This document shows positions 25,985 to 39,277 of a stretch of 48,079 nt of DNA, one piece after another. Position numbers and translations under genes: made by a program. The stretch lies in the NCBI GenBank assembly GCA_029558715.1, contig JAKQEA010000033.1, positions 1 to 48,079 on the forward strand, given 5' to 3'. This DNA is from Bacteroidota bacterium. GTDB taxonomy: Bacteria > Bacteroidota > Bacteroidia > Chitinophagales > Chitinophagaceae. The notes beneath the pieces are model-generated. The model saw only the letters and a list, made by a program, of their open reading frames with translations, did not search any database and was not told where the DNA came from. The number at the start of each line of letters is the position of its first letter. Within the stretch, counting starts at the first letter, position 1.

Positions 25985-26353
25985 TTTCATTAATCACATA
26001 ACCTTTTACAAAATATTCTGTTAGCCGCTGGGTCGCCCATTGGCGAAATTGGGTGCCCGTTTGGGTTTTACCCGGTAGCCAACGGAGATAATTACATCAA
26101 GATTATACACCTCTGCTTTCCTGTTTATCAACCTGTTCCCCTCTTTTTGAACTGTCAAGGAATCCTTGACAGTTGCTTTTTTAATAAGCTCTTTTTCTTT
26201 GTAGCAATTATTAATATGCAAACTGATATTTTGTTTGGTTTGGCCCAAAAGTTTAGCCATTTGTTGTTGCGTAAGCCACACAGTATCCTCTTCAAACTTC
26301 ACCTCTATCTGGGTTTGCTTGTCTTCGGTCTGGTATATTTCTATTGGGTTCAT
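25985..26353 (-). pseudogene. Frameshifted and truncated RhuM-family remnant
   Basis: The intact frame from 26353 reads the RhuM N-terminus: EIYQTEDKQTQIEVKFEEDTVWLTQQQMAKLLG with the HTH, then YNLDVIISVGYRVKPKRA. It then loses frame and stops at 26021. In the neighbouring frame the family sequence continues (GTQFRQWATQRLTEYFVKGY, INEK) to about 25985. Comparison with the intact paralogue at 29224-30195 shows a one-base deletion in a short A/G run near 26058-26061. The remaining two-thirds, including the Fic domain, is absent. The HTH segment differs more from the paralogue than the flanks do. Confidence 0.8.
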
Positions 26354-29223: not shown

Positions 29224-30195
29224 TTAACCTTTGATAAGATTGATGACAAGATTCACCATCAGTTCCTTGTCGTTGGGATCGCTTTGAGCCACCAGCAATG
29301 CAAGGGCCACCAGTGCATTGTCGTTAATTTTCAATTCACCTGATTTTTTAAAGCGGTGTTTATTCTTTTCCAAAAACCACACAAACATAAAAGCACCGAT
29401 ACGTTTGTTGCCATCGGTAAACGGATGGTTCTTGATAACAAAGTACAACAGGTGTGCGGCCTGCTCTTCAATGCTCTTATATAAATATTCTCCGCCGAAG
29501 GTTTGCACTACGGAATTAAGTATGCCCCCAAATGCCCCGTCTCTTTCATTGCCAAACAGGGCAGAAGCTTCTTTCTTTTTTACCAGTTGCTTCTTCAGTT
29601 CTGCAACAGCTTTCACCGCTTCATCGTACTCAATTTCATATGTAATCTTTTCATTCAGCCTGCCCGGCGCCAGTTCGTTACTGTCGAACCGGTTTAGCAG
29701 GATAAAGCTTTGGGTGTAGTTGGTAATAATTTCCAGCAAGCCTTTGGCTTCTGTGGCGGACAGTTCTTTGCCCTCGCCGGTAAGCTGAACCAGCCTGATA
29801 GCCTGCTCCAGGTCGGCTAACCGCTTTTCATTGATGGTATAACCTTTTACCAAATATTCTCTCAACCGCTGGGTAGCCCATTGGCGGAATTGGGTGCCCC
29901 TTTTGGAGTTAACCCGGTAGCCTACAGATATAATGGCATCCAGATTATAATGCAGTATGTCCCGGCGTACTGTTTTGTTTCCCTCCTTTTGAACTTGTGC
30001 AAATTTTGCACAAGTTTGTTTTTCGTCTAACTCCTTTGTCTTAAATATATTCCTGAGATGTTTAAGCACAGAAGTGCGGTCGGTAGAAAACAGTTCTGCC
30101 AACTGGTATTGGCTCAACCACACAGTATCCCCTTCAAACTTCACCTCTACCTGGGTTTGCTTGTCTTTGGTCTGGTATATTTCTATTTGGTTCAT
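29224..30195 (-). CDS. RhuM-family protein with C-terminal Fic/Doc domain
   Basis: A 323-residue protein. The N-terminal RhuM region (about 1-130) contains an HTH-like segment (WLSQYQLAELFSTDRTSVLKH) and the family sequence YNLDAIISVGYRVNSKRGTQF. A linker leads to a Fic/Doc domain with HPFTDGNKRIGAF (H257 to K264 region), the complete Fic motif, so AMP or phosphate transfer is possible. RhuM proteins were first noticed in Salmonella pathogenicity island 3 and are widespread as toxin-like accessory genes. It is single and lies next to the end of the methyltransferase/GHKL operon. It is the intact relative of the remnant at 25985-26353. Confidence 0.9.
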   Translation of the reverse strand: MNQIEIYQTKDKQTQVEVKFEGDTVWLSQYQLAELFSTDRTSVLKHLRNIFKTKELDEKQTCAKFAQVQKEGNKTVRRDILHYNLDAIISVGYRVNSKRGTQFRQWATQRLREYLVKGYTINEKRLADLEQAIRLVQLTGEGKELSATEAKGLLEIITNYTQSFILLNRFDSNELAPGRLNEKITYEIEYDEAVKAVAELKKQLVKKKEASALFGNERDGAFGGILNSVVQTFGGEYLYKSIEEQAAHLLYFVIKNHPFTDGNKRIGAFMFVWFLEKNKHRFKKSGELKINDNALVALALLVAQSDPNDKELMVNLVINLIKG

Positions 30196-30411: not shown

Positions 30412-31146
30412 TTAATTGTACTGATTGCTTTTCCATTTCGCAAACTCAGCTGGCAGTAATTCAACAATCTCATTTCCATTCATCGAGTTCAGATCATAAG
30501 TCATCTGATATTGTCTGATAATCCTCACCAGCCTTCTTGCAGAGCCAGCCCCTTTTCCTGCCGCACCTCTTTTCAAATTGCCGGATGACCCATCCCAATA
30601 CATCAGATTAGCGGCATCAAGGATTCCTTTATTTAATGCTATTTCCTGATAAGCACCAAATTGTTCGGTAATCTCACCTCTTTTCTGAAATGTGCCGATG
30701 AGGAATATTTTAGAAGAGTCTCCAAGCTCAGAATAGAGCCTGCATGGATAAGCAAGCAAATGACGATAGTACTTTGTATAATTCTTCGGGTCTTTCAGAA
30801 TATAAAAAGCCGATTCATTGATTTTTCTTTTCCCGTTACCATCAGGAGGACAGATATTATTAAAATATAAAGCAGAAAGCCACGACCATAGTCCTTTATC
30901 AAAATAAAGATGTTTGTTTGCTTTAAGATTCAACTGTGCAACCAGGTATGGAACTAATTCATTTTTATTTTTGAACTCAACTCTTTCAATATTTATTATT
31001 GGTTCACAGATTTCTGAATATTGTTCATCATACAAAAGTGTTTCGGGTATTTCTTTCATATTACCGCTTCTGATCTCAGTAATTACCCTTTCAAACTCGT
31101 TGAGTCCTTCTTCATTGAATATCCGTATAGAAACCTGATTGCTCAT
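30412..31146 (-). CDS. Unknown protein, last gene of the methyltransferase/GHKL operon
   Basis: A 244-residue soluble protein, which I cannot assign to a function. The central part LYFDKGLWSWLSALYFNNICPP and the C-terminal SARRLVRIIRQYQMTYDLNSM are the best-conserved-looking stretches. No nuclease motif (PD-(D/E)xK, HNH, GIY-YIG) is apparent. Its start overlaps the stop of the preceding gene by 4 nt (ATGA), so translation is coupled. That makes it a true member of the system and a candidate for effector, adaptor or immunity function. A terminator was not found after it. Confidence 0.75.
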   Translation of the reverse strand: MSNQVSIRIFNEEGLNEFERVITEIRSGNMKEIPETLLYDEQYSEICEPIINIERVEFKNKNELVPYLVAQLNLKANKHLYFDKGLWSWLSALYFNNICPPDGNGKRKINESAFYILKDPKNYTKYYRHLLAYPCRLYSELGDSSKIFLIGTFQKRGEITEQFGAYQEIALNKGILDAANLMYWDGSSGNLKRGAAGKGAGSARRLVRIIRQYQMTYDLNSMNGNEIVELLPAEFAKWKSNQYN

Positions 31147-31904
31147 TGCCCTGTGAATTTTTCAAATAATTGCAATTTTTTACAATACTCGTTCACACAG
31201 TCATCTATCCATGCTTCCTGTTCGGGTGTTATTGTTCCGCTTTCAGTATCGGTATCCGGCAGGTTTTTAATACCCAGCACTGAATGAATAAATTTCAGCC
31301 AGTCACTGACCCAGGAATCATCTTCCACTTCAAAATCACCCTGCTCAATTAGTTTTATTAACACTCCCCGGAAGGCAGCCGGATAAACCAAACTGATAAA
31401 GTTTATATCATTCCTTGCCTTCTCGAAAATATCAGGAATCTTTTTATTGATTTCCAGCACAGGTCTTCCGTCATCACTTGAATCAAAACTTAGTTTCCAG
31501 AACTGGTTTTTTAAATCAGTGGGATTTACGGGCAGCAATGGTATTCTGTCATTCGGAACTCCATCCGTACTTACTGCTATACCTTTTGCTTTTCCAAGCA
31601 GGAGGCCAACCTTACCGGATTCATCCACCACAGCAATATCAAAGTAAGCCAGTTCGGTTTCGGGCAGCTCATTCAACCTTGTGTTTTCCGGTTCTTTAAA
31701 ATGAGCAACTGTGCCGAAAGGGAACCGCTGATAAACACCTTTGTAATTTGCTTCGATGTAAATCTTCGCATCAGGTGAGAGGTCCAGACCTTCAAGGTTC
31801 ACTTTTGCCCGGAAATATTTTCCTTCCCTGTCTTTGAACAATGAAATATCAACCCGGCTCCGGGGAATTTTCACTCTTCCTGTATAATTAAACCGGCGGA
31901 TCAT
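31143..31904 (-). CDS. Unknown protein in the methyltransferase/GHKL operon
   Basis: A 253-residue soluble protein. The N-terminal half is rich in short strands (RVKIPRSRVDISLFKDREGK, KIYIEANYKGVYQRFPFG, ELAYFDIAVVDESGK) and may form a beta-sandwich. The C-terminal half is helical, with IFEKARNDINFISLVYPAAFRGVL and an acidic EQEAWIDDCVNEYCKK region. No enzyme motif is recognisable. The start codon directly follows the stop codon of the second GHKL gene (TAAATG), and its end overlaps the next gene. The design suggests a partner that binds the GHKL protein rather than an enzyme, but that is an inference. Confidence 0.75.
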   Translation of the reverse strand: MIRRFNYTGRVKIPRSRVDISLFKDREGKYFRAKVNLEGLDLSPDAKIYIEANYKGVYQRFPFGTVAHFKEPENTRLNELPETELAYFDIAVVDESGKVGLLLGKAKGIAVSTDGVPNDRIPLLPVNPTDLKNQFWKLSFDSSDDGRPVLEINKKIPDIFEKARNDINFISLVYPAAFRGVLIKLIEQGDFEVEDDSWVSDWLKFIHSVLGIKNLPDTDTESGTITPEQEAWIDDCVNEYCKKLQLFEKFTGQ

Positions 31905-33863
31905 TTATTGCAGTTTTAAAAACAAATCTCTCCGTTCATCAAACCCGGTGAGCTTTATTTCAAAATGTGATTTGTCTTCTATATCAAATTCCAGTTCGTT
32001 CTTTTCTTTTTTTGTGAAATAAACCCCCGATGATTCAATCATTATCGGTGATTTGGCCACATCAAAGTCGAGTTCCTGATAACTTTTGATCGGATTGCCT
32101 CTCGGCACATCATATCCGAGTTTCAGTCTGATGGTTTCCGGAAATTCATCAGCTGCCGGATTCTTTACAATTTTCAGTCCTGATACTATCTTCTCAACAA
32201 TAAAAAGCTTTTTCTTTCCTTTTAAGCCGGGGATATCCGGTTCATCAGAATCTTCTTCGCCTTTATCATCATGTCCTTCAAGGTCTTTTGGTTTTCTCTC
32301 TTCCGGTTTTTGCGTTTCAACCGGAATAGAAAAGAAGTCAATCAGGAGGTCTTTCTGAATTCCCTCTATCGGCCTTTGCAGCTGGTCATATATTTTCTTT
32401 AGTGTGGCTTTTACAAAAACAAGGGCTTCCTTTCCGTCTGCATACTTTCCTTTGAAGTTTCTTGAATCCGGCTGCCATTCAGTATGTGCAGGATTTTCAG
32501 AATCACCAAGCATTCTGGCCAGGTCTGTATCATGAATTATGACCACTCCACGAACCAGGCCTTTATCCAATGAAGTGATACCAGAGATGGTAATGCCATC
32601 TCTGACAAAAAGATTTTCCGGTTTGGTGAGTGAAGTATCCTTTTCAAGAAAAGCATTAAACCAACAGATTTTGGCGGTTCCGTTTACCGGATGATATTTC
32701 AATGGGACTTTGAAAGCCACCCGTTCACCTCTTTCAAACTTGTCCCGAAACAAACTCAATCCTTCCTCATCAGCGAACATGCTTTTGTTCCATCGGGGTT
32801 TTAGTTTCAGATCCAGCTCTTTCAGTTTGAAAAAGTCTTCCTCCTGTAACTGAAAAGTCCATCTTGCAAAATCGAAAAGCCGTACAAGACTTTCCCGGCT
32901 CCTGATCTTTTTATCGTCGCCGTTTGATAATAGCTGAAAATCTATTTTATCAATCGCATCCTGAATAGAATTTTTCTCCAGATGTATGAGGTTATCTTCT
33001 TCTATTATTTCCACCTCCAGCCTTCCTTCCAGTATGGGATAGAAGTATTGCTCGATAACCGAATAAGCCAGGTGGTTGATAGTGATCTCCTCTGAGCAAA
33101 ACGGGATGACCAGTGAAAGGCCGGGCTGGTTATTTCTTTCAAGCCTGAAAAGTTTTTCAAACTTTGTCGTCTCACCTGCATCTTCAACCGGAACGGCAAA
33201 ATAAGTCTGGTCCCTATAATTACCGAACATACCATAAGGCCGGTAACCGCAAATCTCTTTTTTATGATCTTCCCTGTTATGTATCCGTAATATACTTTGA
33301 CCCATCAGCATTTTTCGCTGATCACTTTTTCTGACGGTAAGCCCCCAGAAAGTATTGATTCTGGATGAAGCAGGAAAAACCGTTTTTCCCAAGCCCCATC
33401 TTCCCAGCTTATCATCGGTTTTACCGGAACGGCCAACGTTTCTCCAGAAATAATAAAAGTTATGCGGCTGCTGGTCATTATTATTTTCTACATAAAATTC
33501 CTCCGGATTTCCTTCCAGTCCTTTGGTGTTAAAATCTTCAAAGGCCAGGAATTTCATAGGTGCTGTAAAATCCGGCAGCGACTGAAGCCCGGACGCCTTT
33601 GCTTTCAGATGAGGTTGTAATGTTTCCAGCAATGGCAAATAGTCCTGTGGTTTTAATGCATAGGCATCACCCGAAAGAAATATTCCCACTTTTACAGTTT
33701 CTGTTTGTTCACCTCTGTTTCTTTCATCCAGTGCATTCTGAATACCTTCCCGTACAACAGCCGTTGAAATATTATCTATATCCCTTGTGGTAAAAAATTC
33801 ACCCTGGATCGGGTCCACATCCATATCATCACGGGAGTTAGGTTTGAAGCGCCATTCTATCAT
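31905..33863 (-). CDS. GHKL-type ATPase (second ATPase of the operon)
   Basis: A 652-residue protein. GHKL ATP-binding motifs are in the first 160 residues: N-box REGIQNALDER (E39, N43, D46), a degenerate G1 box FEDFNTKGLEG (D110), and a strong G2 box GRWGLGKTVF (G154-K160). The rest (about 230-530) is mostly strands and helices that resemble no family I can name. An acidic charged segment (about 535-565) is followed by a strand-rich C-terminal domain. The architecture recalls MutL/MORC-like ATPases found with restriction-modification genes. The protein would hinge or dimerise on ATP binding. It starts 6 nt after the REC gene. Confidence 0.8.
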   Translation of the reverse strand: MIEWRFKPNSRDDMDVDPIQGEFFTTRDIDNISTAVVREGIQNALDERNRGEQTETVKVGIFLSGDAYALKPQDYLPLLETLQPHLKAKASGLQSLPDFTAPMKFLAFEDFNTKGLEGNPEEFYVENNNDQQPHNFYYFWRNVGRSGKTDDKLGRWGLGKTVFPASSRINTFWGLTVRKSDQRKMLMGQSILRIHNREDHKKEICGYRPYGMFGNYRDQTYFAVPVEDAGETTKFEKLFRLERNNQPGLSLVIPFCSEEITINHLAYSVIEQYFYPILEGRLEVEIIEEDNLIHLEKNSIQDAIDKIDFQLLSNGDDKKIRSRESLVRLFDFARWTFQLQEEDFFKLKELDLKLKPRWNKSMFADEEGLSLFRDKFERGERVAFKVPLKYHPVNGTAKICWFNAFLEKDTSLTKPENLFVRDGITISGITSLDKGLVRGVVIIHDTDLARMLGDSENPAHTEWQPDSRNFKGKYADGKEALVFVKATLKKIYDQLQRPIEGIQKDLLIDFFSIPVETQKPEERKPKDLEGHDDKGEEDSDEPDIPGLKGKKKLFIVEKIVSGLKIVKNPAADEFPETIRLKLGYDVPRGNPIKSYQELDFDVAKSPIMIESSGVYFTKKEKNELEFDIEDKSHFEIKLTGFDERRDLFLKLQ

Positions 33864-33869
33864 CGATAT

Positions 33870-35012
33870 CTATTTAGTAGTATGGTATGCTAGAATTCTC
33901 GCAAAATCAAAATCTGGAGAACCTTGTCTTGAGTAATAAAAAGAAAACTTAGCAATTATATCTTTTACGAAAGAAGATGTAATTGTTGCTTCTTTTCTAT
34001 AATTTACCAATTCTGTATACTTAATCGATGCGATTCGTTGAAAATTTATTAAACCGCCCTTTATAATAGTTGTATCAGGTAAATAATAATATTGCGGACT
34101 ACCATTATTTGTAATTAGCTTAAATATTGAGTCCCTTGCTTTTTCTACAGCCATAGCTTCATCATTGTTTGAAGGCTCCATTTTAGCTTTTTTAATCGAT
34201 GTGCCTAGGGGAGTGTCTTCAAAACTCTGTATTTCTGCTATTACTACCTGAGTAGCCTTGGGTTTTTTCTGTTCACCATGTGGCGCTAAATCGCATGCCG
34301 GATTAAGAATAACATATCTTTTATGGTTATTATTATTCTCTATAATAATATCCCCAGTAAAAAAATAATCTTTTATGCTTGGGACAATATAATTTTCAAT
34401 AGGGTAAACAATATCAAATTCACTTCCATCATCAGAAATTTCCAAATGTTCTTGTAAATGAGTTAGTGTATATCTAAGAAGTGGTTTTTCCGAGTCCTCT
34501 ATCTGCAACCATTCACCTAATGTATTTGATATATTTTTCCAAAAAATTTCATCCAGCATTTTTTCGACTAGCCCTTTTCTTCCTAAAATCTTAGTAATCC
34601 CAGTCTGATAGATATTAATAAGGTACATAATAATCTGTCCATAATCAGCATCAGTCTTATTTATTACTTGTAGAAATAAAGATGTTTTGAAATCGCCATT
34701 AAAATCACCTGGTGTGTTTGTTAATACAATTATTGGGAATCGAAGTTTTTGATATATTTCGCCAATTAAATCATTACCCTCGCTAACACCCACAGCTTGG
34801 CCGGTAGCAAGTTTTAGGTCGATAAAAGCCCCATTGAGATCATCCTTCATTGTATTAATCGCATCCAATCCGGCTTGTTTATCGCTCCTAACAATTGGTT
34901 CAATCTCAAAATTTGGAGATATCTCCATATTTAATATATCAATAGAATCTAAATAAATTTCTTGATCCAATGGGTTGTCCTCAACAATTAATAGTTTTAT
35001 TTTATCCGGCAT
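33870..35012 (-). CDS. Response-regulator receiver protein with unknown C-terminal domain
   Basis: A 380-residue protein. The N-terminal REC domain (about 5-135) keeps the phosphorylation residues: acidic pair in LLIVEDNPLD (E11, D12), phospho-acceptor D65 in GAFIDLKLA, T98/T100 in IIVLTNTPG, and K119 in VINKTD. The C-terminal 240 residues contain a notable YVILNPACDLAPHGEQKK segment, similar in flavour to the CDL motif of several abortive-infection-linked proteins, but no DNA-binding output domain is evident. It lies 2 nt after the double-GHKL gene, whose C-terminal half resembles a histidine kinase. Phosphotransfer between the two is the natural hypothesis. The gene is noticeably A/T-rich. 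Confidence 0.8.
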   Translation of the reverse strand: MPDKIKLLIVEDNPLDQEIYLDSIDILNMEISPNFEIEPIVRSDKQAGLDAINTMKDDLNGAFIDLKLATGQAVGVSEGNDLIGEIYQKLRFPIIVLTNTPGDFNGDFKTSLFLQVINKTDADYGQIIMYLINIYQTGITKILGRKGLVEKMLDEIFWKNISNTLGEWLQIEDSEKPLLRYTLTHLQEHLEISDDGSEFDIVYPIENYIVPSIKDYFFTGDIIIENNNNHKRYVILNPACDLAPHGEQKKPKATQVVIAEIQSFEDTPLGTSIKKAKMEPSNNDEAMAVEKARDSIFKLITNNGSPQYYYLPDTTIIKGGLINFQRIASIKYTELVNYRKEATITSSFVKDIIAKFSFYYSRQGSPDFDFARILAYHTTK

Positions 35013-35014
35013 TT

Positions 35015-37174
35015 CTATTTTTTTAACTCAATAGTAAAATATGCTCCAGCATCAGAGTGATGCGCCGTTATTGTTCCATTTAGTCTTTCAATTGCCTCGC
35101 CTGCGATAGGGAGTCCAAGGCCTGTTCCATCTAATTTTTTTGAAAATCCTGGTTCGAATATAACTCCAGATTCTATATTGAACTTTTCTATGCCTGGGCC
35201 ACTATCTTTATAGTGAATAATTATTTCTTCATTGTCAACAACGTCAATTTTTATTTTTTTCTCTCCTGCATTTGTTTGGCTTAGCCAATAAATACTATTC
35301 TCAATTAAATTAGTTAAGGCAATAAGTAAATCTTCTTCCCATCCTTTTAATTTGATATCATCATTACATTCGACTTGATTCAAAATATTACCATCATTTA
35401 GCTTACCCTCAAAAATTCGTAATGCTTTTGTAATTGCCCCTTTAATATAAAACTCTTTTTTTTCACCTCTGTTTTGTTTCGCTAATGGATCTAATCTTCT
35501 AAAGAGATCTGCCAATATTTCGCTTTGTTGTTTAAAGTTTTCTAATCTACTTAAAATGTCATCATATAAATCATTATCCCATTTTCTTTCAGCTTTGTAA
35601 TGAATTAACCATCTTGAAAGGTTTGGTGACTGTTGTTTAAAATAATGAACAGGTTTCCTGCCTTCATGCAGAAGAACAGTTACAATTTTTCCAAGAGTTG
35701 CCTGTCCCTGATAAATAGCTATGGTGTTTTGTATGTTTTCAAGAAATTTGGATTTCCTTTCTGCATCTTTATGTATAATTTTTGAAATCTCTTTAACGAC
35801 ACTTTCATCAATTTGTAAGTGGCTTAACTTTTTACTTACTTCATCTGTAAGAGTGCTGTAGTCAAATAAATTTTGAATTTCCTGACTAACATTTTTTGTC
35901 TGTCTTCCCTTTCCAGTTTTTTGCCGATAAGAAAATCTCCTTTCTTCAAGTTCCTTCAGCACGGATTTAAGGAGTCTGACAAGTCCAAAATAATATGCAT
36001 TCTCTTTCAAACCATCCCGGGCACTTTTTTCTTCGAGATGTGATATTCTTTCAGGCTTTATGTTTACGAAACCAACAACCTGATTATTACTTACACGCAA
36101 AGAAAAATTCTGAATTCTATCTTTATCAAGATTTAACCAATCAATTCCACCATTACCATAAGGTCTTATTCTGAAACCTTCTCTATAAAGGTTTACTCCA
36201 TACACTTCATCAAGCATTCTGCGGGCATCTCTCTTCCCAACAGCTAAATTAGAAATGGGATCAATTAATCCTTTATCAATTAAATTGCTTATTGCCTCCG
36301 GATCTCTATCAAAAACTCTTATATCAAATTCAATTGGCCCACAGTATTGCTCATTTCTGCTTACTTCAATCTTAATATTTATAACATCTGCTGGAAGGTT
36401 TGGCTCAGCATTATTTTCATACAATGCATTGACAATTCCTTCCTCGGTTATTACACCTGAAATTTTATAATCAAAAAGTTCAATGATTGGAAAGGCCTCT
36501 ATTTCGAAAATATTATTATTGTATTCTTCAAACGGACAGTCAATAAAAGCCAAGTTGATTTGAAATTCATCTTGATTTACAAGTAAGGGAGACTTTAATT
36601 TTCTTAATTCATTTGTTAAACTGGCTAACTCTGATCTTCCCCATTGAGCCATTTTTTTACCTGAGGCAGTTATGTAGAGCTTAGTTCCGGATAAATTATT
36701 TGTACCCTCCTCTTTGGTTACTAAAATCTCTACGTCTTCTAAAAACTCTTTTGACTCGAAATGAGACCAATTGATTAGAACTTCAGTTTTTTCTCCCTTC
36801 AAATCAACGGTGCTTAATATTAAAGTTTCACCAAGAACAGCTGCAGCATATCTTCCTATTCCTTTTTTACCTTGGAAAAGACGCCCACCTGGACTCGAAA
36901 CTCGATTAACTTTATCTTTAGTAGCTGGTACAAGCCATGCATTTAAAACTACTTCGTTTGACATTCCATGGCCGTCATCTTCTATTTCAATTTTTAAGAC
37001 ATCCTCATTATCAACCTTTGTGTATCTAAACACAATGTCGACTTTAGATGAATCGGCATCGTATGAATTCTTAACTAGTTCTACAATTGCAGCATATACG
37101 TCACCAATTAAGTCTTCCCCGATTGTTGAAATTAACCGAGCAGCAGGTCTTATTTTTGTTATTTGTGCCTCCAT
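35015..37174 (-). CDS. Double GHKL ATPase: MORC/MutL/Hsp90-like N-terminus and histidine-kinase-like C-terminus
   Basis: A 719-residue protein with two ATP-binding modules. Module one (1-about 210) has N-box ELVKNSYDAD (E32, N36, D39), G1 DDGHGM (67-71) and G2 GKKGIGRYAA (102-110), the MutL/MORC/Hsp90 pattern, followed by an S5-like transducer (about 215-370). Module two is histidine-kinase-like, with LLHEGRKPVHYF (H503, a possible phospho-acceptor), a coiled dimerisation helix, N-box LIENSIYWL (E625, N626), DSGPGI (657-662) and GTGLGLPIAGEAI (683-695). Such fusions are rare. The next gene is a REC protein. Start codon ATG directly follows the methyltransferase stop (TAGATG). Confidence 0.85.
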   Translation of the reverse strand: MEAQITKIRPAARLISTIGEDLIGDVYAAIVELVKNSYDADSSKVDIVFRYTKVDNEDVLKIEIEDDGHGMSNEVVLNAWLVPATKDKVNRVSSPGGRLFQGKKGIGRYAAAVLGETLILSTVDLKGEKTEVLINWSHFESKEFLEDVEILVTKEEGTNNLSGTKLYITASGKKMAQWGRSELASLTNELRKLKSPLLVNQDEFQINLAFIDCPFEEYNNNIFEIEAFPIIELFDYKISGVITEEGIVNALYENNAEPNLPADVINIKIEVSRNEQYCGPIEFDIRVFDRDPEAISNLIDKGLIDPISNLAVGKRDARRMLDEVYGVNLYREGFRIRPYGNGGIDWLNLDKDRIQNFSLRVSNNQVVGFVNIKPERISHLEEKSARDGLKENAYYFGLVRLLKSVLKELEERRFSYRQKTGKGRQTKNVSQEIQNLFDYSTLTDEVSKKLSHLQIDESVVKEISKIIHKDAERKSKFLENIQNTIAIYQGQATLGKIVTVLLHEGRKPVHYFKQQSPNLSRWLIHYKAERKWDNDLYDDILSRLENFKQQSEILADLFRRLDPLAKQNRGEKKEFYIKGAITKALRIFEGKLNDGNILNQVECNDDIKLKGWEEDLLIALTNLIENSIYWLSQTNAGEKKIKIDVVDNEEIIIHYKDSGPGIEKFNIESGVIFEPGFSKKLDGTGLGLPIAGEAIERLNGTITAHHSDAGAYFTIELKK

Positions 37175-38434
37175 CTAAAAAAGTTTCTTTAAAAATTTTG
37201 CAATTTCAACAGCCATTAATGGTGGCACCGCATTTCCAATTTGTTTAAATGCTGCTGTTCTGTTTCTTCCTTCGTTCACTCCTTCAAAATAAAAATCATC
37301 CGGAAAAGATTGCAGACGGGCTGCTTCCCGTACAGTCAATGAACGGTTTTGTTTTATATCGGGATGTATATAATAGTGCCCGTCTTTGGCAATATGTGCC
37401 ACTACTGTTTGTGAATAAGCAGCTTTTTCATTTACCACCTTAAAGCGGTCAAAGAAAGAGTGGCGGTTTTTATGTGTCATTAACCTTTGTGGAAGAGAAG
37501 TATAACTTAATCTTTCTCCCTGCAGCATTTGCTCCACGGCAATGCGGTATATCTCCTTATCCTGTTCTGTATGCGGCCTTGCTATATGCTGGGTGAGTAT
37601 TTCCATCCCATTTCGTATGCCACTTTTGTCCAGGTACTCTGTTTTTGGTTTTCTGTATGTAAGGCTTTCGCCTTTATCAACTCCTTGCCCTGCATGTAAC
37701 GGAGGAAGATCGCTCAGCAACTCTTTAACGATGTGTTTTGTGCTATTGCGTATTGCTTCCAGATCAGGCAGTATTATTTTTAATTCTTTCTGCCAGCCGA
37801 TTATGATCACTCTCTTTCTATTTTGCAGTACACCAAAATTGTTGGCTTCAACGGTAAACAGTTTCATATGGTAGCCTTTCTTTTCAAAAAGCTTTTCCAT
37901 ATTCGTCAGATAAATACCTGAACCGGCAGATTTTAATCCCAGCACATTTTCAAAAACAAACAGTTTAGGATTATACTTCTCCAGGTATTTGGCATACTGC
38001 ACATAGAGATAGTTTCTGTGGTCACCCTTCATACCATCTTTACGTCTTGCCCTTCCCACCAATGAATAAGCCTGGCAGGGCGGGCCACCAATAATTAAAT
38101 CCACTTTCCGGTTGCCAAGCAATGACTCAATGGTTTTATGAATTTTGGGGTTATTGTCTGCTCCTATTGGCAGATTGATTACACTTTTCAGTATTTCTTC
38201 AGGGACTTTACTATACAGGTACTCCCTGTTTATTTCACCTTTCAGGTATTGCTTATAGATATCAAGCTTTCCATTTGCTTTAAGATAATGATATGCCGCC
38301 CTTGTTCTCAATGTATAACAGGCGGCTTCATCCATTTCCACATGTGCAATAAGTTCATATCCTGCCCGGATAAATCCTTCTGATAAACCTCCTGCACCGG
38401 CAAAGAGGTCGATAAAAGTCAACTTCTTTGTCAT
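37175..38434 (-). CDS. dcm: DNA cytosine-5 methyltransferase
   Basis: A 419-residue C5 methyltransferase with motifs in order: FIDLFAGAGGLSEGF (I, SAM), GGPPCQAYS (IV, with the catalytic Cys), FVFENV (VI), QNRKRVIIIG (VIII), REAARLQSFPDDF (IX) and QIGNAVPPLMA (X). About 45 extra residues sit between motifs I and IV. The target recognition region lies before motif IX, and the target site cannot be read from sequence. It would protect the cell's own DNA in this system and may, together with Vsr, influence mismatch repair. Its start overlaps the end of the XRE gene by one base. Confidence 0.95.
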   Translation of the reverse strand: MTKKLTFIDLFAGAGGLSEGFIRAGYELIAHVEMDEAACYTLRTRAAYHYLKANGKLDIYKQYLKGEINREYLYSKVPEEILKSVINLPIGADNNPKIHKTIESLLGNRKVDLIIGGPPCQAYSLVGRARRKDGMKGDHRNYLYVQYAKYLEKYNPKLFVFENVLGLKSAGSGIYLTNMEKLFEKKGYHMKLFTVEANNFGVLQNRKRVIIIGWQKELKIILPDLEAIRNSTKHIVKELLSDLPPLHAGQGVDKGESLTYRKPKTEYLDKSGIRNGMEILTQHIARPHTEQDKEIYRIAVEQMLQGERLSYTSLPQRLMTHKNRHSFFDRFKVVNEKAAYSQTVVAHIAKDGHYYIHPDIKQNRSLTVREAARLQSFPDDFYFEGVNEGRNRTAAFKQIGNAVPPLMAVEIAKFLKKLF

Positions 38435-38652
38435 TACTTAAATTCTTTACTGTCGAAAAATTCTTTGGGTGTTGTTCCTAATGCGCTGATGATTTTATCA
38501 AGTGTAGAGAGAGAAATATTTTTTCTGCCGTTTTCAATGTGAGTGAGATAGGTTCTTTCCATCTCTGCCTCATATGAAAATTTCTGTTGTGATAAGTTTC
38601 TGGCTTTTCTTAGTTGGGTAATTCGCTGTCCAACTTTGGTTTTCAAATCCAT
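38434..38652 (-). CDS. XRE-family HTH regulator (C-protein-like)
   Basis: A 72-residue protein that is a single HTH domain: RKARNLSQQKFSYEAEMERTYLTHIENGRKNISLSTLDKI, with the recognition helix around residues 30-45. Size and position before a DNA methyltransferase are those of controller (C) proteins of restriction-modification systems. The start at ATG 38652 is preferred over a TTG two codons upstream. It overlaps the dcm start by one base, and GGACAC/GTGTCC repeats lie upstream. Confidence 0.85.
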   Translation of the reverse strand: MDLKTKVGQRITQLRKARNLSQQKFSYEAEMERTYLTHIENGRKNISLSTLDKIISALGTTPKEFFDSKEFK

Positions 38653-38684
38653 AAACAATTGGGTAAGTAAGTTTGGGAAATACC

Positions 38685-38760
38685 GTGTACTTCAGGACAC
38701 AAAATGCCCTAAGGCGAATTTATCTTTGTGTCCCAGAATATACGGCATACTATAGGACAC
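38685..38760. promoter_or_regulatory. GTGTCC/GGACAC repeats upstream of the XRE-dcm operon (putative C-boxes)
   Basis: GGACAC occurs at 38695-38700 and 38755-38760, and GTGTCC at 38728-38733. GTGTACTTCAGGACAC (38685-38700) is an imperfect palindrome. GGACACAAA (38695-38703) is the reverse complement of TTTGTGTCC (38725-38733). TACTTCAGGACAC and TACTATAGGACAC (38688-38700 and 38748-38760) match at 11 of 13 positions. They lie 33-108 nt upstream of the XRE start. The HTH protein of this operon is the obvious ligand. Confidence 0.55.
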
Positions 38761-38863
38761 ATTGTTAATTGCGAGAACTCTGAATAGCAGAACAAGAATA
38801 ACACTTAGTGCATAAAGTACATTTGCCTTTAAGTCACTATTAATAAGTGAGGAATAAAAGAAA

Positions 38864-39277
38864 TCAGGAGAGTTTCTTCAGTAAGGAAGAAAGGGTTCTA
38901 TCAAGCTTCGCAGGCCTAAGCTTGCATTCCCAGATGGTAATAATCTTCCAGCCTTCTTTCTTCAAAGCCTTTACGGCTTTAGCATCATTGGCTTTGTTGG
39001 TGTTTATTTTATCCAGCCACCATTGCGTTCTTGTTTTGGGAACTACAAAGTATTTGCAGTTTTTATGTCCGTGCCAGAAACAGCCGTGTATGAAAATGAT
39101 GGTTTTATATTTCGGTAAAACAATATCCGGCTTACCCGGCAGTGTTTTTTTATGCAGAGAATAACGGAAGCTATTGGCATGTAAGAATTTCCGCACCAGA
39201 ATTTCCGGTTTGGTATTGGTCGCTTTTATCTGCGACATGTTGTAGCTGCGGGTCTTTTTATCATGTACATCAGCCAT
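38864..39277 (-). CDS. vsr: Very short patch repair (Vsr) endonuclease
   Basis: A 137-residue Vsr protein. The signature is complete: SQIKATNTKPEILVRKFLH, LPGKPDIVLPKYKTIIFIHG, CFWHGHKNCKYFVVPKTR, and the WKIITIWECKL end. The catalytic Asp is in LPGKPDIVL, the zinc-site Cys and His are in GCFWHGHKNC. Vsr nicks DNA beside T:G mismatches left by deamination of 5-methylcytosine and commonly accompanies Dcm enzymes. It is upstream of the XRE-dcm operon on the same strand, with about 210 nt of regulatory sequence between. In some related systems a Vsr-like enzyme is thought to act as the restriction nuclease. Confidence 0.95.
   Translation of the reverse strand: MADVHDKKTRSYNMSQIKATNTKPEILVRKFLHANSFRYSLHKKTLPGKPDIVLPKYKTIIFIHGCFWHGHKNCKYFVVPKTRTQWWLDKINTNKANDAKAVKALKKEGWKIITIWECKLRPAKLDRTLSSLLKKLS

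What the first reader, a model, noticed from the sequence alone, without database searches (positions are those of the whole stretch)
30412..39277. Methyltransferase, two GHKL ATPases, receiver protein and Vsr form one operon-like defence candidate
Seen: seven leftward genes with junctions from a 4-nt overlap to a 6-nt gap (XRE, dcm, double GHKL, REC, GHKL, two unknown), with vsr on the same strand upstream. Known: Iyer, Abhiman and Aravind described MutL/MORC-type GHKL ATPases in predicted restriction-modification operons with methylases and Vsr; other versions often include Z1 or PD-(D/E)xK proteins. Inference: the set is a methylation-guarded defence system in which the REC protein adds a phosphorelay step, with no conventional restriction enzyme apart from Vsr. 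I do not recall the REC-containing form as an experimentally characterised system, though genomic reports may exist.
Basis: partly seen in the sequence, partly recalled or inferred. Interest (0 to 1): 0.88.

Follow-up and report, generated by a model that had tools for sequence, protein, structure and literature searches.

The report
Defence gene island with swappable parts
A run of bacterial genes looks like an anti-virus locus built around a DNA-marking enzyme, in which the place that holds a DNA-cutting enzyme in two close relatives is filled here by a two-protein signalling relay, next to a separate three-gene set of unknown action; this is predicted from sequence only.

Summary
The genes are real and lie as described, but they are two separable modules on a methylase/Vsr anchor rather than one dedicated system. 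Module 1 (dcm, double-GHKL "HK", REC) is a His-Asp pair in which a restriction-enzyme/MORC-type ATPase (residues 1-213) is fused to a histidine-kinase end: the phospho-His is kept in 74 of 76 aligned relatives and the phospho-Asp aligns in 62 of 62 REC-position proteins. A sister system is in print (HEF_HK/Response_reg_2, 2021), but the window proteins match neither of its Pfam models. Module 2 (GHKL2, p253, p244) is complete and in one order in 76 of the 80 best relatives; one of those 80 carries REC. Its GHKL is akin to PADLOC candidate PDC-M33A. The slot between methylase and module 2 is exchangeable: with GHKL2 77-84% identical, relatives hold HK-REC, a BbrUII/HgiDII-like MORC-nuclease, or a KaiC-like NTPase. 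A same-genus genome carries other cargo in the same region. Best reading: a restriction-modification-like defence locus whose cutter was exchanged for a phosphorelay, with an independent trio behind it. Function is untested.

The parts
38864..39277 (-). vsr, very-short-patch repair endonuclease, 137 aa
   Evidence: Pfam Vsr 1.2e-32; TIGR00632 140.5 bits, over its cut-off; 205 nt upstream of XRE
38434..38658 (-). XRE/C-protein-like regulator, 74 aa, TTG start
   Evidence: HTH_3 4e-12; PADLOC Control_protein 4.8e-20
37175..38434 (-). dcm, C5-cytosine methylase, 419 aa; PPCQ and ENV motifs
   Evidence: PF00145 1.1e-59; PADLOC DrmMII PDLC02649 1.6e-173; motifs
35015..37174 (-). HK: MORC/restriction-enzyme-type ATPase (about 1-213), middle part, His-box H503, C-terminal HATPase_c; 719 aa
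   Evidence: HATPase_c_3 1.3e-20 and HATPase_c 2.1e-20; NF050001 BbrUII/HgiDII N-terminus 4.8e-13, far under cut-off; profile match 1-213 to the MORC-nuclease of L058/L060, probability 99.1; residues
33870..35012 (-). REC: receiver (about 3-140, D65) plus output domain of unknown function (about 205-366, PxCDL and RQGxP motifs); 380 aa
31905..33863 (-). GHKL2: GHKL ATPase, PDC-M33A-like, with the ExxxH signature quoted for paraMORC2 (E456, H460); 652 aa
   Evidence: PDC-M33A 6.2e-18; 99.8 probability to M33A-type proteins; conservation in 81 sequences; residues
31143..31904 (-). p253, second gene of the trio, unknown function, 253 aa
   Evidence: homologue in 77 of 80 trio loci
30412..31146 (-). 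p244, third gene of the trio, unknown function, 244 aa; confident model without a library match
   Evidence: homologue in 76 of 80 trio loci; pLDDT 93.8; no match

Best explanation
A methylase-anchored defence locus with an exchangeable middle. dcm marks host DNA and Vsr repairs deaminated 5mC (family functions, recalled). In the middle slot two close relatives keep a MORC-type ATPase fused to a PD-(D/E)xK nuclease; here an ATPase of the same type is fused to a histidine kinase. Likely chain: the N-terminal ATPase engages unmarked or otherwise foreign DNA; the kinase end autophosphorylates at H503; the phosphoryl group passes to D65 of REC; the REC output domain then acts, as effector or as switch. 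GHKL2-p253-p244 is a second, self-sufficient anti-invader module sharing the methylase and probably the transcript. Shown: gene order, homologies, conserved His, Asp and ATP-site residues, slot exchange. Inferred: defence, DNA sensing, phosphotransfer, the action of the output domain and of the trio.
For: HK-REC pairing: 60 of 66 viral loci have a REC-position ORF next to HK; seven of seven long REC hits in 395 Bacteroidota genomes. Catalytic residues: first ATPase site 76 of 76, H503 74 of 76, N622 74 of 76, D65 62 of 62. HK 1-213 homologous to the MORC-nuclease of the same slot, which fits BbrUII/HgiDII restriction enzyme over 7-612, E 3e-91, under its equivalog cut-off, and shows an RxIDF...IEIKR nuclease motif. 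Slot exchange: DNA similarity to L060 and L058 breaks at the GHKL2 start codon and in the last 50 nt of dcm; the window dcm groups with the MORC-type loci, support 0.986. dcm beside HK in 29 of 66 viral loci and beside the trio in 35 of 80. Trio self-contained: 76 of 80 complete, one order.
Against: No function was tested. The window HK and REC match neither PF19191 nor PF19192. The REC output domain has no known relative in PDB by sequence and its model is weak. p253 and p244 have no known function. HK also resembles ordinary sensor kinases, so DNA as the signal is an inference. A different HK-RR allele sits beside an HNH gene, which favours a control role. Vsr may simply be a repair companion.
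Confidence: 0.5

Rival explanations
1. HK-REC controls the neighbouring nuclease-like module: it senses infection or DNA state and switches on the trio (here) or an HNH enzyme (in G024). The seven genes would then be one system.
For: Six-nt junction REC/GHKL2; L059 keeps the same eight-gene layout although HK and REC are only 43% and 35% identical; in G024 the RR is followed by an HNH restriction-type gene.
Against: REC in only 1 of 80 trio loci; no trio in 66 HK viral loci or in six other Bacteroidota HK-REC loci; the same output-domain cluster occurs with and without the trio.
Confidence: 0.2
2. HK-REC is a regulator of the methylase or of the locus only (the speculation of PMC8011034), not a defence effector; the trio is the only defence.
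For: Receiver-type proteins are usually regulators; 12 of 70 REC-position proteins have less than 90 aa beyond residue 150.
Against: The slot is filled by a restriction-enzyme-like protein in L058 and L060; 58 of 70 REC-position proteins have larger outputs in seven clusters, and no known DNA-binding domain was named in the output of the window REC.
Confidence: 0.15
3. Chance neighbours in a defence hotspot: the modules share a place and a promoter but no function.
For: The same region holds other cargo in G024; about half of the trio loci have no methylase in the stretch held; a RhuM-Fic gene lies next door.
Against: dcm and vsr are the only strongly recurrent neighbours of the trio (35 and 25 loci, next clusters 6); the methylase segment 226-345 keeps shared blocks across slot types.
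Confidence: 0.13

Closest known systems
HEF_HK / Response_reg_2 two-component-like pair beside R-M genes (Bellieny-Rabelo 2021, PMC8011034)
   Same: HATPase_c_3 + His-box + HATPase_c kinase next to a receiver protein; C5 methylase and often vsr nearby; the five PF19192 loci fetched have kinases homologous to the window HK profile.
   Different: Window proteins match neither curated domain; those kinases are 966-1001 aa by ORF and receivers over 520 aa, against 719 and 380 aa; the paper describes no trio and no slot exchange in the sections read.
PADLOC candidate PDC-M33 (A/B/C)
   Same: GHKL first gene, three-gene order; L053 and L054 carry M33A/B/C-like genes beside vsr and dcm.
   Different: p253 and p244 match no M33B/M33C model and do not align by profile.
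paraMORC2 of Iyer, Abhiman and Aravind (PMC2292703)
   Same: GHKL ATPase in R-M neighbourhoods with a conserved ExxxH motif.
   Different: S5 domain not tested; the sections read name no p253/p244 partners.
BbrUII/HgiDII restriction enzymes (NCBIfam NF050001)
   Same: N-terminal ATPase of HK (4.8e-13) and the whole slot protein of L058/L060.
   Different: The window HK has a kinase end where that protein has its nuclease.
DISARM
   Same: The methylase is best described by the PADLOC DrmMII model; in L045 dcm-HK-REC-vsr converges on DrmA and DrmB.
   Different: No DrmA or DrmB found in the window with the L045 pair as query.
Detocs two-component defence (recalled, not read)
   Same: Works-like parallel: kinase, receiver and effector as an immune relay.
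   Different: No homology tested; one PMC listing mentions the name and was not read.

Membership tests
HEF_HK / Response_reg_2 pair | HATPase_c_3 N-terminal and HATPase_c C-terminal in the kinase | tested here: met
HEF_HK / Response_reg_2 pair | HEF_HK domain PF19191 | tested here: not met
   no hit and in own genome; three sub-cut-off hits among 50 viral records
HEF_HK / Response_reg_2 pair | Response_reg_2 domain PF19192 | tested here: not met
   the model does ring in 7 of 296 Bacteroidota over cut-off
HEF_HK / Response_reg_2 pair | Conserved His and Asp, genes adjacent, C5 methylase nearby | tested here: met
PDC-M33 | M33A-type GHKL | tested here: met
   6.2e-18; 99.8 probability over 407 columns
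PDC-M33 | M33B and M33C (DUF6339) proteins | tested here: not met
   0 PADLOC hits; profile probabilities 0.9 and 0.3
paraMORC2 | GHKL motifs plus C-terminal ExxxH | tested here: met
   signature as worded in PMC2292703 section 5
paraMORC2 | S5 domain between them | not tested
DISARM | DrmMII methylase | tested here: met
   1.6e-173
DISARM | DrmA and DrmB | tested here: inconclusive
   not found in the window with one query pair from L045; other DrmA/DrmB clades not tried
Type II R-M system | Recognisable cognate endonuclease | tested here: not met
   none in the window run apart from Vsr; present in the same slot of L058 and L060
Two-component system (mechanism) | Phosphotransfer from His to Asp | not testable with these tools
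   residues conserved only

The most novel reading that the evidence does not exclude
Phosphorelay restriction: a type II restriction enzyme of the MORC-nuclease kind has had its cutting half exchanged for a histidine kinase, so that the absence of the host methyl mark is passed on as phosphate to interchangeable receiver-effector proteins. One methylase lineage would serve several killing devices (nuclease, phosphorelay, KaiC-like NTPase, and the trio, whose third protein matches nothing in the fold libraries searched).
Probability: 0.33. Interest if true: 0.85.

Novelty: new variant of a known kind. Interest (0 to 1): 0.62.

Why it matters
If right, recognition of unmarked DNA can be coupled to a His-Asp relay instead of directly to cutting. 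That would give two-component signalling a DNA input and would explain why these kinases carry a second ATPase where a sensor domain belongs. It also sets out a three-gene module found in contigs labelled with many phyla and two archaea (nearly all are metagenome bins, so labels may err), whose third protein is confidently modelled but unmatched. The slot exchange offers a clean experiment: same methylase lineage, different cassettes.

Full report
What is there. The window is a whole 48-kb contig (G000:C225) of a genome placed by the tool in the same family as G147, whose record is labelled Chitinophagaceae (L051 and L058 are the same place). Eight minus-strand genes run vsr, XRE, dcm, HK (double GHKL), REC, GHKL2, p253, p244; the seven after vsr are packed from a 4-nt overlap to a 6-nt gap. 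HK carries HATPase_c_3 and HATPase_c; dcm, XRE and Vsr are clear; REC, GHKL2, p253 and p244 have no significant Pfam family. PADLOC names the methylase DrmMII (1.6e-173) and GHKL2 PDC-M33A (6.2e-18).

HK and REC are a conserved pair. Forty-four plasmid records match REC, 41 of them Campylobacter; the Enterobacter, Fusobacterium and two Campylobacter loci fetched all have HK beside REC, and the last three have dcm. Of 395 Bacteroidota genomes 166 match the REC profile at E 0.001, but most listed matches cover only the first hundred or so positions, as ordinary receivers would; seven matches, the window included, are long (positions 1-353 to 77-350; the last, L014/L050, is weak at 54.9 bits) and all seven have HK next to REC. 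In viral contigs 66 loci encode HK relatives; 60 of 66 have, next on the same strand, an ORF of over 200 aa in REC position. Of the six misses L138, L161 and L195 end at or near the end of the stretch held; L146, L177 and L202 do not. In an alignment of 76 HK proteins (window, nine further loci, 66 viral) E32, N36, D66, G68, G70, G105 and G107 are kept in 76 of 76, H503, N622 and G683 in 74, D657 in 69; in 62 REC-position proteins D65 aligns in 62, and position 11 is D or E in 62. A cruder motif check, without alignment, found an acidic pair and a candidate Asp in 56 of 62. REC outputs vary: of 70 proteins 58 have at least 90 aa beyond residue 150, in seven clusters; the window is in the cluster of 17. 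A methylase hit (E 1e-5) lies in 29 of 66 viral loci and Vsr in 12. The receiver is confirmed by profile and fold.

Relation to the published pair. PMC8011034 (abstract, introduction, results and discussion read; [quoted passage not shown] The window proteins match neither model, while PF19192 rings over cut-off in 7 of 296 Bacteroidota genomes. Of those seven, five loci were fetched: kinase ORFs of 966-1001 aa match the window HK profile at E 1e-54 to 8e-68, dcm is in four of five and vsr in one. In 50 of the 66 viral records given, no hit passed either cut-off; two sub-cut-off PF19192 and three sub-cut-off PF19191 hits appeared. The window pair is therefore a sister branch of a reported kind.

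The trio is a unit of its own. GHKL2 matches seven of 395 Bacteroidota genomes, the window included, some weakly. A genome-contig scan found 247 relatives and kept the best 80. Of these 77 have p253 and 76 have p244 homologues; the misses are L088, L108 (p244 only), L111 and L130. In all 76 complete cases the genes are on one strand, in one order, closely spaced. Record labels span Bacteroidetes, several Proteobacteria, Planctomycetes, Verrucomicrobia, Acidobacteria, Chloroflexi, Nitrospirae and others, and two archaea; nearly all are metagenome bins. One of 80 (L059) has REC. A C5 methylase lies in the stretch held in 35 of 80 and Vsr in 26 (25 within 7 kb); among 43 loci with 3 kb on both sides 28 have the methylase. 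It lies upstream or downstream and on either strand (17, 10, 7 and 1), so the tie is not one inherited layout; against it, more than half of the 80 show no methylase, and several loci with ample flanks have no recurrent neighbour. GHKL2 has intact ATPase motifs and ExxxH (E456, H460; about 98% conserved in 81 sequences, where numbers one lower), the signature that PMC2292703 (section 5 and passages) gives for paraMORC2. GHKL2 aligns to M33A-type proteins at 99.8 probability; p253 and p244 do not align to the M33B and DUF6339 proteins.

The slot is exchanged. Percent identity to the window, GHKL2/p253/p244/dcm: L058 84/86/81/79; L060 78/79/78/82; L059 81/80/76/64; L061 78/74/72/65; L062 77/70/75, no dcm hit in its 3.8 kb upstream. 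Between dcm and the trio stand a 617-619 aa MORC-nuclease (L058, L060), HK-REC (window, L059; HK 43%, REC 35%), or smaller ORFs plus a KaiC-like NTPase (L061, and before the trio in L062). DNA similarity of the window to L060 and L058 stops at the GHKL2 start codon and within the last 50 nt of dcm. Slot genes are AT-rich: GC 0.32-0.34 against 0.40-0.41 for dcm and GHKL2 in the window, 0.29-0.32 against 0.35-0.36 in L059, 0.30 against 0.39-0.40 in L060, 0.32 against 0.41 in L058; XRE and p244 are low too (0.29-0.37), so this is supporting only. In a tree of 51 methylases a clade of seven (support 0.999) interleaves slot types, and the window sits with L058 and L060 (0.986). The MORC-nuclease fits BbrUII/HgiDII restriction enzyme over 7-612 (E 3e-91; 307 bits against a 550-bit equivalog cut-off, so family level only). 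PMC5867850 (passages) describes M.HgiDII as a 5mC methylase of GTCGAC. The window HK aligns to the MORC-nuclease over residues 1-213 (99.1 probability). The methylase segment 226-345, where I place the target-recognition part from recall, is 56-76% identical in L058-L061, L049 and L067, and 37-47% in the seven other loci compared, with shared blocks; 40% in G024. Whether these mark one DNA motif is not shown.

Same region, other cargo. In same-genus genome G024 both flanks match (DNA 89% right, 80% left) and vsr is kept (80% aa), but the cargo is dcm (53%), HK (32%), an RR whose best hits are in another output cluster, an HNH restriction-type gene and a 172-aa ORF, on the other strand and without the trio, besides further genes. 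In L045 dcm-HK-REC-vsr converges on DISARM DrmA (4e-196) and DrmB (3e-67); with that one query pair no other scanned locus showed them.

Structures. p244: 35 sequences, pLDDT 93.8, pTM 0.89, no acceptable match. REC: 7 sequences, pLDDT 72.5: receiver good, output part too weak to judge.

Reading. Best reading: a restriction-enzyme-type ATPase drives a His-Asp relay where close relatives have a nuclease, with an independent trio behind it. VcSduA (PMC12137116, passages) shows by experiment that a GHKL ATPase fused to a nuclease protects against phages and needs both its ATPase and nuclease residues; that is support by analogy only. PMC12839542, PMC3710099, PMC4267653 and PMC7159879 were seen as passages only; PMC3710099 proposes RhuM as a toxin domain in multilevel defence, which bears on the neighbouring gene and not on this operon.

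Noticed in passing
window 29224-30195 and 26021-26353: A RhuM-Fic gene (PADLOC PDC-S23, 1.3e-136) lies 217 nt downstream of p244 on the same strand, and a second, short RhuM-like ORF lies at 26021-26353. No RhuM-Fic hit occurs in the 80 trio loci.
   Followed up: partly
L228 (G024 C32, same genus): Same chromosomal region with a different dcm-HK-RR allele, an HNH gene and a kept vsr.
   Followed up: partly
L045 5430-16037: DISARM DrmA and DrmB genes converge on vsr-REC-HK-dcm in one Bacteroidota contig.
   Followed up: partly
L061 5894-9966; L062 176-3728: A third slot filling: small unknown ORFs plus an 816-844 aa KaiC/AAA-like NTPase (42% identical to each other) just before the trio.
   Followed up: partly
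L129 4803-8151; L134 10001-13409: The complete trio on two contigs labelled archaeal (Nitrososphaeria, Methanomicrobiales); both are metagenome bins.
   Followed up: no
L180, L182, L200: HK partners with unusually long REC-position proteins (613, 566 and 505 aa) forming their own output cluster.
   Followed up: no
L057 10054-10614: A short ORF resembling only the REC output domain (profile positions 210-352, E 2.9e-9), with no HK or dcm hit in that stretch: the output domain may exist on its own.
   Followed up: no
L053 6565-10117; L054 9575-13121: PDC-M33A/B/C-like trios with DUF6339 beside vsr and dcm in other Bacteroidota.
   Followed up: partly
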